From a virus, in IMG/VR virus record IMGVR_UViG_3300022837_000065, positions 1 to 27,950 of that record: 27,950 nt of DNA; one strand, written 5' to 3'. A model generated the notes under the pieces. That model did not search any database, was not told where the DNA came from, and saw only the letters and a program-made list of their open reading frames with translations. Of the stretch, positions 2,124-27,256 are shown piece after piece. Both the position numbers and the translations under genes were made by a program. Every line of letters begins with the position of its first letter. The stretch's first letter is position 1.

Positions 2124-2161
2124 AGGCGGGATGCCTTAACGATAGCAAAGGCGGGACGCCT
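2124..2161 (+). promoter_or_regulatory. tandem GGGAN-loop hairpins before the methyltransferase start
   Basis: Two four-base-pair hairpins occur 12 bases apart: AGGC-GGGAT-GCCT (2124-2136) and AGGC-GGGAC-GCCT (2149-2161). The second ends one base before the ATG at 2163, occupying the place where a Shine-Dalgarno sequence would be; no other ribosome site is visible. The same arrangement precedes the genes at 3451 and 8729. A translational operator, RNA-protein binding site or transcription-pausing element are all possible. Confidence 0.55.
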
Positions 2162-2162
2162 A

Positions 2163-3413
2163 ATGGCAGACCAGAAATGGCCAGCGGATAAAGTCGAACG
2201 CCGCAATGTTGCTGACTTGATCCCATATGCACGCAACAGCCGGACGCACAGCGCCGAGCAAGTGTCGCAGATCGCAGCCAGCATCAAGGAATGGGGCTGG
2301 ACAGTCTCGGTTTTGATTGAAGCCGATGGCGGATTGATTGCAGGCCACGGGCGGATCTTGGCCGCGCAAAAGCTGGGCATCAAAGACGTGCCTTGCATGG
2401 TCGCCGAAGGATGGACCGACGCGCAGAAGAAAGCCTATGTGATTGCTGACAACAAGCTGGCCCTGAATGCGGGCTGGGATGACGCGATGCTCAAGGTTGA
2501 GATGGGCGAACTGGACGCGCTGGACTTTGACCTGTCGCTGACCGGCTTCGGCGCTGACGAATTCGCGGCGTTTTTTGTTGAGGAAACCGAAGGGCTGACA
2601 GATGAAGACGCGGTGCCAGACGCGCCTGCCGTTCCCGTGACGGTCCTGTGCGACGTGTGGCTGCTGGGGCGGCATCGTTTGATGTGCGGGGACAGCACCA
2701 GAATAGACGTGGTGGAGCGGCTGATGGATGGGCGGAAGGCCGACATGGTTTTCACTGATCCGCCTTATGGCGTTAGCTACACAGGCGGGTTGTCAGACAA
2801 GGGTGGCGGATTAAAAGCCAACGCCAGAGAAATGATAAAAAACGATGACGTAGATTTATATTGCGAAGCGGTCACTATTTCTGCCGCGTTCTGCCTTGGC
2901 CCTGTCTTTATGTTTTATGCGGACACTGTGCCATTCGGGTTGTATGGCGGCGTTCAAGATGTTGGCGGCGATGTCGTCGCCCTTTTGATCTGGCGCAAAA
3001 AAGGTGGTTACGGCGCTCTTGGGGCTTCTTATAAACCGAACCATGAGCCTTGCTTGATCTGGAAGCCAAAAGGAGCAAAGCTAAACTTTATTGGGTTTAC
3101 TACTGAAAATAGGGTTTGGGATGAGGATAAAGACTTTTCTAACAAGCTGCACCCAACGCAAAAGCCGGTAACAATACCAGAGCGTGCAATTCGCAATCAT
3201 AAAGCTGATACGGTTCTGGATTTATTTGGCGGCAGTGGTTCAACACTTATAGCTTGCGAAAAGGTAGGCCGCGATTGCCGCATGATGGAACTAGACCCAA
3301 AGTATTGCGACGTAATCATTCAGCGCTGGCAGGAATTCACAGGCCAGACAGCAACGCTAGAAGCTACAGGCCAGACATACACCGAACTAAAGGTCGAGCG
3401 CCTAGCAGCTTAA
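2163..3413 (+). CDS. ParB-like domain fused to N6-adenine/N4-cytosine DNA methyltransferase
   Basis: A 416-residue two-domain protein. Residues 10-105 are a ParB/Srx-type domain (the IPYARNSRTHS stretch, then GGLIAGHGR and ADNKLA), common at the front of phage methyltransferases. Residues 160-392 are a beta-class amino-methyltransferase: DPPY at 199-202 is catalytic motif IV, HPTQKPV at 330-336 and FGGSGST at 355-361 is the SAM-binding motif, in the order IV then I. It probably methylates phage DNA against host restriction. An ATG 51 bases upstream is possible, but the start at 2163 follows the hairpin pair exactly as at 3451. The target-recognition part (about 2815-3300) is AT-richer than both flanks, suggesting a swapped specificity segment. 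Confidence 0.9.
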   Translation: MADQKWPADKVERRNVADLIPYARNSRTHSAEQVSQIAASIKEWGWTVSVLIEADGGLIAGHGRILAAQKLGIKDVPCMVAEGWTDAQKKAYVIADNKLALNAGWDDAMLKVEMGELDALDFDLSLTGFGADEFAAFFVEETEGLTDEDAVPDAPAVPVTVLCDVWLLGRHRLMCGDSTRIDVVERLMDGRKADMVFTDPPYGVSYTGGLSDKGGGLKANAREMIKNDDVDLYCEAVTISAAFCLGPVFMFYADTVPFGLYGGVQDVGGDVVALLIWRKKGGYGALGASYKPNHEPCLIWKPKGAKLNFIGFTTENRVWDEDKDFSNKLHPTQKPVTIPERAIRNHKADTVLDLFGGSGSTLIACEKVGRDCRMMELDPKYCDVIIQRWQEFTGQTATLEATGQTYTELKVERLAA

Positions 3414-3415
3414 AC

Positions 3416-3449
3416 GGGCGGGAAGCCCTAAAGAAAGGGCGGGACGCCT
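3416..3449 (+). promoter_or_regulatory. tandem GGGAN-loop hairpins before the small terminase start
   Basis: Directly after the methyltransferase stop come GGGC-GGGAA-GCCC (3416-3428) and GGGC-GGGAC-GCCT (3437-3449, outer pair G-U), eight bases apart. One base separates the second from the ATG at 3451. Compared with 2124-2161 the first stem has A-U changed to G-C on both sides, a compensating change. There is no separate Shine-Dalgarno sequence. Confidence 0.55.
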
Positions 3450-3450
3450 G

Positions 3451-3840
3451 ATGACCAAGAAACATACAGGCCGACCGCCTTTCACTTTGAGCGACGAACA
3501 ATTTAAAACAATCGAAGGCATGGCGCGGATTCAATGCACGCAGGACGAAATCTGCGACATCTTTGAGGTGACGGACAAGACGCTGAACCTGGCGCTTAAA
3601 AAGCACAACGGCACTTCTTTCTCCGACCTTATTAAAAAGAATATAAGCCACGGCAAGGCATCGCTGCGCCGAAACCAATGGAAGGCCGCTGAAAAGGGCG
3701 TGCCGTCAATCCTTATTTGGCTTGGCAAACAGCACCTTGGCCAGAAGGATGTGGTCGAAAGTACAGGCGCAGTTGATGTGCATCATTTTGATGGGTGGCA
3801 AATTGACCGCGCGAAACCCGATCCATCTGAGCCTGACTGA
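3451..3840 (+). CDS. terS: terminase small subunit
   Basis: This 129-residue protein has the usual small-terminase size and plan. Residues 8-62 form a helix-turn-helix: LSDEQFKTIEGMAR, the QDEICDIFEV turn with a recognition helix after it, then a Lys-rich segment. The rest is helical oligomerisation sequence (SHGKASLRRNQWKAAEKG, then IWLGKQHLGQKD, a motif typical of TerS tails). It recognises phage DNA and loads the large terminase. It lies directly upstream of the large subunit with a 50-base overlap, and downstream of tandem hairpins that replace the ribosome site, so its translation may be regulated. Identification is from layout and context and is strong. Confidence 0.88.
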   Translation: MTKKHTGRPPFTLSDEQFKTIEGMARIQCTQDEICDIFEVTDKTLNLALKKHNGTSFSDLIKKNISHGKASLRRNQWKAAEKGVPSILIWLGKQHLGQKDVVESTGAVDVHHFDGWQIDRAKPDPSEPD

Positions 3841-7609: not shown

Positions 7610-7698
7610 GGTTTGCAAGGGCTAGGCGGATACGCCGAAAAGTTGGTTTCCACCCAACCTGCCCCGTTTTGAAAGTGGATGCCTTGGAGGGCAGGAAT

Positions 7699-8640
7699 AT
7701 GGCTTTAGATTGCGCAGCGCCAAGCGTTGGATATGATACTGACGCAAAGGATGCTTACAGAAAGCAGGTTTGGGCGGCACTAATACCATCATGGGAACTC
7801 AAAAAGCATGATGAAAGATCACACGTATTGATCATGCCGAGCCGTGAAGGGCTGGAGATACCGTTGCTTATATCACTGGGCGTGCCTGAGGATAGGATTG
7901 TAGCAGTTGACAAAAGCGCCGCCGTTATTGCTACATCAAAGTGGCGGAAGTTGTATCCGGGTGTGAAGTTTTTTTCATCAACCATTGGTGAGTGCGGCAA
8001 GAAAATTGAAGCAAAAAAGTGGGTGATTTGTGCCGCAAACCTTGATTTTTGCAGCAACTTTTGCGAAAGTATTATCTCTGAATATAGCGGGTTTTTAAAC
8101 TGCCCTAGGTTTCCAGAAGCAAGGATAGCTATAACTATTGCAAAGGGGCGTGAGGGCAAGGCTTTGGTTGCCATGCTTAGGAGGTTTTCGCAAGAATTAG
8201 TCGGCATTCAGGAGCCTAGGCTCGCTGCCCTTTTGGCATGTAGCGGTCATCAATCAGAGCAAATTGTTTGGGCGCAAGGTAAATATACATCAAACATGAA
8301 CCCAATGGCGTGGTTAGTTTTGTCTAATAATTACGTTAAGGACGCAATGGTTGACGACCACATTCAAGAGTTTTACAGCTTGGATTATGAAGATGCATCG
8401 GCGCGCGTGTATGATTGGTGCGCCACGCTGAGACTTGGCGGGACTGAACGCTTAAGGATTACAAAGTCTGATGTGGGGAATTGGCTTGAAAACACAATTT
8501 CGGCGCCATTTGTTGACATGATTGAGCGTCACGATCAAAATATGACTGTCATAAGGCGTAAGTCTATCGGCATGAAATATAGCGAGCTAGACCGTGCGTT
8601 TACACACGCGCGTAATTCAATATGGAGGGCTATTGATTAA
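7699..8640 (+). CDS. cargo gene (moron): putative Rossmann / SAM-methyltransferase-like protein
   Basis: A 313-residue protein inserted between head genes. A GGAGG ribosome site eight bases upstream fixes the start; an in-frame ATG 30 bases earlier lacks one. Residues 42-52 (HVLIMPSREGL) look like the glycine-poor first loop of a Rossmann fold, D71 in IVAVDKS fits the acidic residue that holds the cofactor, and NLDFCSN (115-121) sits where methyltransferase motif IV would be. The remainder is unrecognised. Composition is visibly AT-richer than neighbouring head genes, and the gene has its own terminator immediately after it, so it looks like an acquired, self-contained cassette. Likely non-structural: a host-modifying, anti-defence or defence role is inference. 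A methyltransferase call is tentative; no target can be stated. Confidence 0.55.
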   Translation: MALDCAAPSVGYDTDAKDAYRKQVWAALIPSWELKKHDERSHVLIMPSREGLEIPLLISLGVPEDRIVAVDKSAAVIATSKWRKLYPGVKFFSSTIGECGKKIEAKKWVICAANLDFCSNFCESIISEYSGFLNCPRFPEARIAITIAKGREGKALVAMLRRFSQELVGIQEPRLAALLACSGHQSEQIVWAQGKYTSNMNPMAWLVLSNNYVKDAMVDDHIQEFYSLDYEDASARVYDWCATLRLGGTERLRITKSDVGNWLENTISAPFVDMIERHDQNMTVIRRKSIGMKYSELDRAFTHARNSIWRAID

Positions 8641-8661: not shown

Positions 8662-8686
8662 AAACCCTGCTTTTGCGGGGTTTTTT
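8662..8686 (+). terminator. strong rho-independent terminator after the cargo gene
   Basis: CCCTGC, a TTTT loop and GCGGGG (one G-U pair), extended by AAA/TTT and followed by six T. It closes the cargo gene and lies inside the otherwise continuous head operon, so downstream expression needs read-through, antitermination or another promoter. Confidence 0.9.
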
Positions 8687-8688
8687 AC

Positions 8689-8723
8689 GTTCGCGGGATG
8701 CGAACCTTAACAGCGGGAAGCTG
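8689..8723 (+). promoter_or_regulatory. tandem GGGAN-loop hairpins before the scaffold start
   Basis: GTTCGC-GGGAT-GCGAAC (8689-8705) and CAGC-GGGAA-GCTG (8711-8723), five bases apart, end five bases before the ATG at 8729. Stems differ completely from those at 2124 and 3416, yet the loop and the closing C-G pair are the same, which is covariation evidence for an RNA structure. No ordinary Shine-Dalgarno sequence is present. Confidence 0.55.
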
Positions 8724-8728
8724 AACCA

Positions 8729-9439
8729 ATGAAAATCGAAATCACTGACGCAACCACGCTCCCGGCGTGGCTTCAAACGCATGTGGCCGATGGCCACCTT
8801 GATCTTGGCGCACTGGCCGCACCTGAAGACGTGGCGGGCCTCAAGACGGCTCTGTCTAAGGAGCGCGGCAACGCAGCGGCCTACAGCAAGTACGGCACCC
8901 CTGCGGAGATTGACGCCAAGATCGCCGAGCTAACCGACAAGGCGAAAGGCAGCGGCAAGGGCGCGGATGACGCGCAAGCCAAGCTGGACGCAATGGCGGC
9001 TGACTACGAAGGCAAGCTGACCGGCGCAAATGACCGGATCAGCAAGATGATGCAGCGCAGCGCGTCGTCTGACCTAAAAGCAGAACTCGCGAAAGCCGGG
9101 TTTAAGCCTAGCGTGATTGACAAAATGGCTCAATTCAACATGGACCGCATACAGTTTCACGAGGACGGGTCGGCAAAGATCCTGACTTCGGACGGAAAGC
9201 CCATGATTGGCAGCGGTGCCGATCACGGTGCGACCTTGGCCGACTTGGCTAAGGAACTTGCGGCGGACGATGACAATTCTGATTTTGTCTTGGCCGCAGG
9301 CAAAGGCGGGGGCGGGAAGCTACCGACAGCGACTGGCGGGACGCCTGACAAGCCAACGGTAACGCGAGCGCAGTTCGACGCAATGTCGCAAAGCGAGCGT
9401 GCTAATCACTCAAAATCAGGCGGCGGCATTCAAGGCTGA
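8729..9439 (+). CDS. capsid scaffolding protein
   Basis: A 236-residue, charged, mostly helical protein directly upstream of the coat gene, the standard scaffold position. It starts MKIEITDATTLPAWLQTHV, has an Ala/Lys/Asp-rich helical middle (about 40-115, coiled-coil-like), then LKAELAKAGFKPSVIDKM, a motif common in phage scaffolds, and a Gly/Thr-rich flexible segment near 190-215 before a short basic end. Scaffolds guide coat assembly and leave before packaging. Its start follows the hairpin pair, so translation may be controlled there. A second hairpin-like pair lies within its 3' part. Confidence 0.85.
   Translation: MKIEITDATTLPAWLQTHVADGHLDLGALAAPEDVAGLKTALSKERGNAAAYSKYGTPAEIDAKIAELTDKAKGSGKGADDAQAKLDAMAADYEGKLTGANDRISKMMQRSASSDLKAELAKAGFKPSVIDKMAQFNMDRIQFHEDGSAKILTSDGKPMIGSGADHGATLADLAKELAADDDNSDFVLAAGKGGGGKLPTATGGTPDKPTVTRAQFDAMSQSERANHSKSGGGIQG
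9311..9345 (+). other. GGGAN-loop hairpin-like pair inside the scaffold gene
   Basis: GGC-GGGAA-GCT (9311-9321, three pairs with one G-U) and GGC-GGGAC-GCC (9335-9345) lie 13 bases apart, close to the spacing of the pair at 2124. They fall in the Gly-rich coding segment and are 118 bases before the coat start, so this copy may be coincidental. Confidence 0.25.
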
Positions 9440-27011: not shown

Positions 27012-27170
27012 TTAAGCCGCATTCAGCGCGGCGATCAGGTTTTGGCGCGACGCGGCATGGGCGGCGGCACGGGCGGCGGAGGCATATGCGGCACGGGCGG
27101 CATCGGCAGCGATATGCGCTTTTACTTCAGCGAGAAGGGTGTCGTAGTTGCGGGTTAGGATAGTATTCAT
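27012..27170 (-). CDS. 52-residue alanine-rich helical protein, first gene of the leftward operon
   Basis: After a GGAG ribosome site the frame encodes MNTILTRNYDTLLAEVKAHI, then AADAARAAYASAARAAAHAA and SRQNLIAALNAA. More than 40 percent is alanine, with Arg/His every three to five residues, suggesting a continuous amphipathic helix or coiled coil. It is the first gene from the divergent control region. Function unknown; DNA codons are a tandem GCC-rich series, so slippage could alter repeat length. Confidence 0.6.
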   Translation of the reverse strand: MNTILTRNYDTLLAEVKAHIAADAARAAYASAARAAAHAASRQNLIAALNAA

Positions 27171-27256
27171 TGGTTCTCTCCGGTTGATTTGTTCTGTCCC
27201 GACATTTGCACGTCAAAGCGCTTGCGTCAATACAAATGTTATGACAATGTGACGAC
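27171..27256. promoter_or_regulatory. divergent control region with operator-like repeats
   Basis: Between divergent genes, ACATTTG (27202-27208) and CAAATGT (27233-27239) form a perfect inverted repeat. It flanks the palindrome AAGCGCTT (27216-27223) and two direct GTCAA copies (27212 and 27226). TTGACG hexamers read leftward and TTGCAC/TTGCGT read rightward are candidate -35 boxes, but -10 matches are poor. The adjacent ribbon-helix-helix protein is the natural candidate for binding here and regulating both directions. Confidence 0.5.

What the first reader, a model, noticed from the sequence alone, without database searches (positions are those of the whole stretch)
2124..3449. Tandem GGGAN-loop hairpins replace the ribosome sites of the methyltransferase and the small terminase
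Two pairs of hairpins with the same loop (GGGAT, GGGAC, GGGAA, GGGAC) closed by C-G stand directly before the ATGs at 2163 and 3451; the last hairpin ends one base before each ATG. Stem letters vary while pairing is kept. No other Shine-Dalgarno sequence is visible. The loop GGGA itself could pair with the anti-Shine-Dalgarno region, or be bound by a GGA-recognising protein such as a CsrA-type protein. I know of no named element with this form.
Basis: partly seen in the sequence, partly recalled or inferred. Interest (0 to 1): 0.82.

Follow-up and report, generated by a model that had tools for sequence, protein, structure and literature searches.

The report
Paired RNA hairpins before phage scaffold genes
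Many tailed phages carry two small RNA hairpins with matching loops directly in front of the gene for their capsid-scaffold protein (in this phage group also in front of two other genes), probably a built-in translation switch tied to capsid assembly that, as far as I could find, nobody has described.

Summary
Relatives fetched by protein homology carry the pairs at the same three places, with clear compensatory changes in the stems. The GGGAN loop is only one local version. Across a wide range of Pseudomonadota phages (including Jerseyvirus, Dhillonvirus, Septimatrevirus and many Pseudomonas phages) two hairpins stand right before the scaffold start codon: 34 of 55 non-redundant scaffold genes against 39 of 703 other genes. 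The two loops match each other within a phage (AGG/AGG, GGT/AGT, AGA/AGA, TAAGG/TAAGG, GGGAN/GGGAN; p < 5e-5), and the Shine-Dalgarno letters usually lie inside the second hairpin. Host CsrA is ruled out for this group: the gene is absent from 149 of 149 host-family genomes. Best reading: a translational operator, bound most likely by a phage protein, with the scaffold protein itself the leading candidate (P22 scaffold autoregulation is a functional precedent). The ligand and the repression are inferred. I found no named family, no Rfam match and no paper describing it.

The parts
2124..2136 (+). hairpin 1 of the methyltransferase leader pair, loop GGGAT
   Evidence: same place in relatives L005, L007, L008, L009, L019, L020
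2149..2161 (+). hairpin 2 of the methyltransferase leader pair, loop GGGAC; GGGA lies 6 nt before the ATG at 2163
2163..3413 (+). DNA methyltransferase with ParB-like N-terminus
   Evidence: phrog_498 E 1.5e-126; N6_N4_Mtase E 2.5e-18; relatives begin at the same place after the pair
3416..3428 (+). hairpin 1 of the small-terminase leader pair, loop GGGAA
   Evidence: covariation
3437..3449 (+). hairpin 2 of the small-terminase leader pair, loop GGGAC; GGGA lies 6 nt before the ATG at 3451
   Evidence: covariation
3451..3840 (+). small terminase subunit
   Evidence: phrog_309 E 3e-7
8662..8683 (+). intrinsic-terminator-like hairpin and T run directly before the scaffold leader pair
8689..8705 (+). 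hairpin 1 of the scaffold leader pair, GTTCGC-GGGAT-GCGAAC
   Evidence: covariation; tandem form is the minimum-energy fold
8711..8723 (+). hairpin 2 of the scaffold leader pair, CAGC-GGGAA-GCTG; GGGA lies 10 nt before the ATG at 8729
8729..9439 (+). head scaffolding protein
   Evidence: phrog_206 E 3.7e-16
9311..9321 (+). GCGGGAAGC copy inside the scaffold coding sequence, first of two at 24-nt spacing
   Evidence: present in all 23 distinct scaffolds printed from GGGAN phages; Gly codon GGG 46/46 in the motifs against 30/293 elsewhere
9335..9345 (+). GCGGGACGC copy inside the scaffold coding sequence, second of two

Best explanation
The paired hairpins are an RNA translational operator whose primary site is the leader of the phage head-scaffold gene. 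Two short hairpins with the same kind of loop stand a few nt apart, the second ending a few nt before the start codon; the second usually holds the Shine-Dalgarno letters in its loop and 3' arm. The ligand is most likely phage-encoded, and the best candidate is the free scaffold protein itself, so that assembly of capsid shells, which removes free scaffold, would restart scaffold synthesis. In this Rhodobacterales phage group (loop GGGAN) the same pair was also placed before the small-terminase and methyltransferase genes and, less certainly, inside the 3' end of the scaffold gene, which would put packaging and DNA methylation under the same signal. Shown: anatomy, conservation, covariation, loop matching, association with the scaffold gene, absence of CsrA. 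Inferred: that a protein binds, that binding represses, and that the protein is the scaffold. My separate estimates: translational operator about 0.8; phage-encoded ligand about 0.65; scaffold protein as ligand about 0.45.
For: Pairs before scaffold starts in loci chosen by protein homology: 118 of 148 unique upstream regions against 8.8 expected from shuffles; 34 of 55 clusters against 39 of 703 other ORF starts in the same loci. Matched-loop pairs in whole loci: 31 forward, most of them at the scaffold start, 0 on the reverse strand. Loops of hairpins 1 and 2 agree within a phage: 25 of 29, permuted mean 13.4, 0 of 20,000 permutations; without GGGAN 17 of 20 against 8.8, p = 1e-4. Compensatory changes: scaffold leaders 42 cells against 10.6 shuffled, terS/MTase leaders 30 against 11.3, 0 of 500 shuffles each. 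Pseudomonas phages keep the pair while the sequence upstream of it varies. Loop class follows the scaffold tree: 10 changes against 23.6 shuffled; phages of one host family carry different loop classes (Ruegeria AGA against other Roseobacteraceae GGGAN; two Halomonadaceae NAG and NGG). The scaffold gene is the one gene that carries the pair throughout. All 16 scaffolds tested are phrog_206. No csrA in the host family.
Against: No binding or expression data. Inheritance alone also makes loops follow the scaffold tree. Several phages with homologous scaffolds lack a clear pair (Rosemountvirus, Steinhofvirus, Pappous, Lokivirus Halfdan, a Vibrio phage). The scaffold model shows no recognisable RNA-binding fold and no PDB match. 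The two cited window leaders fold more stably as one merged hairpin. Most loops look like Shine-Dalgarno fragments, so part of the conservation could be for the ribosome.
Confidence: 0.6

Rival explanations
1. Another phage-encoded RNA-binding protein (small terminase, major capsid protein or an unknown small protein) binds the pairs and controls the scaffold gene, and in this group also terS and the methyltransferase gene.
For: Loop matching and loop change between phages ask for a phage-encoded ligand but do not name it. Small terminase carries a pair in this group, and in L083 with the loop type of its own scaffold leader.
Against: An autogenous regulator should carry the pair on its own gene; only the scaffold gene carries it throughout, while most triloop phages have no terS pair.
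Confidence: 0.2
2. No protein ligand: the loops are ribosome landing sites (exposed Shine-Dalgarno fragments or a standby site), and the pair sets a high or temperature-dependent rate of scaffold translation.
For: Loops are mostly purine-rich and Shine-Dalgarno-like, and the second hairpin holds the Shine-Dalgarno letters 5-10 nt from the ATG.
Against: Loops such as AGT/GGT or TGT/TGT are poor anti-Shine-Dalgarno matches but still agree between the two hairpins; in Septimatrevirus the Shine-Dalgarno lies in the 5' arm of hairpin 2; hairpin 1 would have no need of the same loop.
Confidence: 0.15
3. The hairpins are mRNA processing or stability elements (5' end protection or RNase sites) at a segment boundary of the late operon.
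For: A terminator-like hairpin lies directly upstream in the window (8662-8683), and terminator-like sequence is commoner upstream of scaffold genes (8/51) than of other genes (5/625).
Against: Stem sequence is free to vary while the loop is kept and matched, and the pair is always close to the start codon; RNase III or end protection would not require matched loops.
Confidence: 0.08
4. A host CsrA/Rsm-type protein binds GGA in the loops.
For: GGA in the loop of a short hairpin over the Shine-Dalgarno, with two sites in tandem, is the CsrA layout; AGGGA and AAGGA pentaloops bind RsmE strongly (PMC4005645).
Against: csrA absent from 149/149 genomes of the host family, 9/9 alphaproteobacterial genomes and 12/12 phage records; related leaders use AGG, AGA, AAG or GGT loops without GGA.
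Confidence: 0.02
5. The repeats act in DNA, for example as small-terminase packaging sites or cruciforms.
For: Copies lie near terS, and coding copies exist.
Against: Strand-specific orientation (0 reverse), fixed distance to start codons and Shine-Dalgarno inside hairpin 2 fit RNA; most phages have only the scaffold copy.
Confidence: 0.03

Closest known systems
Autoregulation of the P22 scaffolding protein (gene 8), known to me as post-transcriptional repression by unassembled scaffold (own knowledge; no open paper found)
   Same: Same gene function and the same logic: free scaffold would lower its own synthesis.
   Different: P22 gene 8 has no tandem hairpins before its start.
CsrA/Rsm target sites in mRNA leaders
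   Same: Paired hairpins with G-rich loops, the second over the Shine-Dalgarno.
   Different: No csrA in hosts or phages of the window's group; many leaders lack GGA; the best CsrA loop is the ANGGAX hexaloop (PMC4005645).
RNA-phage coat operators (MS2, PP7) and T4 gp43 operator
   Same: Hairpin over the start region bound by a phage protein to repress translation (gp43 operator: PMC3014915).
   Different: Single hairpin, unrelated sequence; here two hairpins with matched loops in DNA phages, before the scaffold gene.
TwoAYGGAY candidate RNA motif (PMC2864571)
   Same: Two hairpins with GGA-type loops (loop sequence from its name; own knowledge).
   Different: Reported from human gut samples, gammaproteobacteria and Clostridiales; different loop; no Rfam family matched any site here.

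Membership tests
CsrA/Rsm target | the organism or phage encodes a CsrA protein | tested here: not met
   0/149 host-family genomes, 0/9 alphaproteobacterial genomes, 0/12 phages; positive controls rang
CsrA/Rsm target | GGA in the hairpin loop, overlapping the Shine-Dalgarno | tested here: inconclusive
   met in the GGGAN group, not in relatives with AGG, AGA, AAG, GGT loops
Any Rfam family | covariance-model match at the leader sites | tested here: not met
   no match at the leader sites in the window (evalue mode) or in 14 related loci (gathering mode)
P22-type scaffold autoregulation | the gene under the element encodes the scaffold protein | tested here: met
   phrog_206 head scaffolding protein in 16/16
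P22-type scaffold autoregulation | free scaffold represses its own translation | not testable with these tools
   needs an experiment
P22-type scaffold autoregulation | the same RNA element in P22 itself | tested here: not met
   no tandem hairpins before gene 8
Phage hairpin translational operator (general kind) | conserved RNA hairpins overlapping the ribosome binding site, with covariation | tested here: met
Phage hairpin translational operator (general kind) | a phage protein binds it and represses translation | not testable with these tools
   indirect only: loop matching and loop change between phages

The most novel reading that the evidence does not exclude
A previously undescribed, widespread family of matched-loop tandem-hairpin operators lets tailed phages sense capsid assembly: free scaffold protein binds its own leader, the recognised loop changes together with the scaffold lineage, and in Rhodobacterales phages the same code was extended to the small terminase, a DNA methyltransferase and sites inside the scaffold coding sequence, making a small assembly-controlled regulon.
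Probability: 0.4. Interest if true: 0.85.

Novelty: new variant of a known kind. Interest (0 to 1): 0.75.

Why it matters
Scaffold proteins are made in large amounts and reused, and how phages match scaffold supply to shell assembly is an old question, with P22 autoregulation as the classic case. This element offers a concrete, testable RNA site for such control in many phages, including laboratory phages of E. coli, Salmonella and Pseudomonas, and a natural series of loop variants from which ligand specificity could be read. If confirmed it would also give new RNA-protein pairs for controlling translation.

Tried and rejected
Host CsrA (gene absent). Phage CsrA. A host-wide regulon with the same pair in Rhodobacteraceae: matches are no commoner than the reversed control outside prophages. 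Known Rfam families. Merged long hairpin as the conserved fold: no covariation. Fold search of the scaffold model for an RNA-binding domain: no match with E <= 0.001. P22 gene 8 as a homologous site: none. The GGGAN covariance model does not find the triloop leaders, so one model does not cover the family. Literature searches for scaffold autoregulation sites or hairpins before phage scaffold genes gave nothing relevant in the open library. Two scaffold searches of viral contigs gave almost no relatives. My own terminator detector missed the window's terminator and was too strict to quantify it fully.

Full report
1. Observation. The window is a virus record with a tailed-phage head module: methyltransferase, small and large terminase, portal, head morphogenesis, scaffold, major capsid. 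Tandem GCGGGANGC copies occur four times on the + strand, never on the - strand and never in the reversed-pattern control; the fourth lies inside the scaffold coding sequence.

2. Relatives of the window. Eighty loci with a related large terminase were fetched by protein homology. Most of those with more than about 53% identity whose contig reaches far enough carry the pairs at the same three places. Named prophages of Actibacterium, Brevirhabdus, Loktanella, Maritimibacter, Leisingera and Roseibacterium carry them too, before the scaffold gene and in several also before terS, so this group infects Rhodobacterales. Stems change with pairing kept: on 30 scaffold leaders 95.9% of pair cells pair (81.2% shuffled) with 42 double-change cells (10.6 shuffled); on 30 terS/methyltransferase leaders 88.1% pair with 30 double changes (11.3 shuffled); none of 500 shuffles reached either value, and slid controls collapse. 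Rows were required to show hairpins of at least 3 bp, so the innermost pairs are not independent evidence; the outer pairs are. A covariance model built only from scaffold leaders gives the four known sites as its best four hits in the window, two of them (2122, 3414) being leaders of other genes.

3. Which fold. Plain folding of the two cited leaders prefers a single long hairpin formed by exchanging arms between the two near-identical hairpins (-16.7 and -20.6 against -9.8 and -12.6 kcal/mol); the scaffold leader folds as two hairpins. The merged fold has no covariation support on the same alignment (score 0.122 against 0.112 shuffled, 103 of 500 as high) while the tandem fold has (0.275 against 0.117, 0 of 500). 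The tandem form is therefore the conserved one; in the window the terS and methyltransferase leaders may be bistable.

4. The element is wider than GGGAN. Looking at scaffold leaders of more distant phages showed two hairpins in the same place with other loops. About 80 Pseudomonas-type phages fetched by scaffold homology nearly all have GCAGGC-AGG-GCCTGC followed by GTCTC-NGG-GAGAC, or a variant with both stems replaced, while the sequence upstream of the pair varies. Annotated phages show the same: SETP7 (Jerseyvirus) TGG/AGG, Envy (Dhillonvirus) TGG/AGG, SCUT-S4 (Septimatrevirus) GGT/AGT, RcSpartan GGT/AGT, Achromobacter ART AGT/GGT, FtMidnight AGT/AGT, Bas74 TGG/AGG. With one fixed rule, 118 of 148 unique scaffold leaders have a pair against 8.8 expected from dinucleotide shuffles. 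After clustering scaffolds at 70% identity, 34 of 55 have it against 39 of 703 other ORF starts in the same loci. Searching whole loci for pairs with the phage's own loop type gave 31 on the coding strand, most at the scaffold start, and none on the other strand; one exception, L083, has the same loop type before its small terminase.

5. Loop matching. Among 29 cluster representatives the core letters of the two loops agree in at least two of three positions in 25, against 13.4 when partners are permuted (0 of 20,000); without the GGGAN group 17 of 20 against 8.8 (p = 1e-4). A few calls in that list are misassigned hairpins (L014, L209, L225), which weakens rather than inflates the result. Loop class follows the scaffold tree (10 changes against 23.6 shuffled) and not the host: a Ruegeria prophage has AGA loops while other Roseobacteraceae prophages have GGGAN, and two Halomonadaceae prophages differ. 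The simplest reading is one ligand that touches both hairpins and whose taste changes with the phage.

6. Not CsrA. CsrA (PF02599) is absent from 12 related phage records, from nine alphaproteobacterial genomes that hold such prophages or a scaffold relative and from all 149 genomes searched in the host family, while the positive controls rang. The host family's genomes show no excess of GGGAN pairs over the reversed-pattern control apart from prophages.

7. Coding copies. All 23 distinct scaffold genes printed from GGGAN phages carry two GCGGGA(A/C)GC 9-mers at 24-nt spacing in the glycine-rich linker, about 100 nt before the end of the gene; scaffolds of phages with other loops carry none. 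The motif glycine is GGG in 46 of 46 cases against 30 of 293 glycines elsewhere in the same region, and the residue after the lysine or threonine may be P, Q or L, all with codons that begin with C. This points to selection on the nucleic acid, though shared descent contributes; stems there are only 2-4 bp in most cases, so these are weaker sites.

8. Mechanism. The second hairpin holds the Shine-Dalgarno letters in nearly all groups (for example CAGGGAGAC, CCAGGGGAC, CAAGGAGTCC, CCAGAGG; in this group GGGA 5-10 nt before the ATG). Binding to the pair would block the ribosome. The only gene that carries the pair throughout is the scaffold gene (phrog_206, 16 of 16), which is what an autogenous regulator would show, and P22 scaffold autoregulation is a functional precedent (own knowledge). 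P22 itself has no such pair. The scaffold model (mean pLDDT 78) has long helices and a flexible glycine-rich linker and no structural match that would reveal an RNA-binding domain. The ligand therefore remains an inference.

9. Novelty. No Rfam family matches; the literature searches found nothing on it in the open library. The general kind, a hairpin translational operator in a phage, is known; the matched tandem form, its tie to the scaffold gene across many phage genera and its spread to terS and a methyltransferase gene are, as far as I could find, new.

Noticed in passing
window 7615-7678 (+); L199 12674-12739: int-alpA RNA-like sequence just after the head-morphogenesis gene; below the curated cut-off in the window (30.5 against 35.8 bits) but above it in L199 at a similar place.
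   Followed up: partly
L039 4812-4848: abiF RNA (RF03085, 38.7 bits, above cut-off) directly before the small-terminase hairpin pair and just after a tRNA gene.
   Followed up: no
window 8662-8683: Terminator-like hairpin with a T run inside the late operon directly before the scaffold leader pair; similar in many relatives, role unknown.
   Followed up: partly
window 7669-8640: 323-aa ORF between head morphogenesis and scaffold genes without any Pfam or PHROG match; probably an inserted accessory gene.
   Followed up: no
L209 13990-14045: Three matched-loop hairpins (GAG, AAG, AAG) in a row before the scaffold gene instead of two; L240 also shows three.
   Followed up: no
L091, L104, L112, L126, L132, L154, L159, L175: GGGAN pairs upstream of phrog_206-like scaffold genes that also have a separate canonical Shine-Dalgarno after the second hairpin: an intermediate form outside the window's group.
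   Followed up: partly
window 27087-27232 (-): Weak S15-leader-like match (24.9 bits, cut-off 39.5), probably chance.
   Followed up: no
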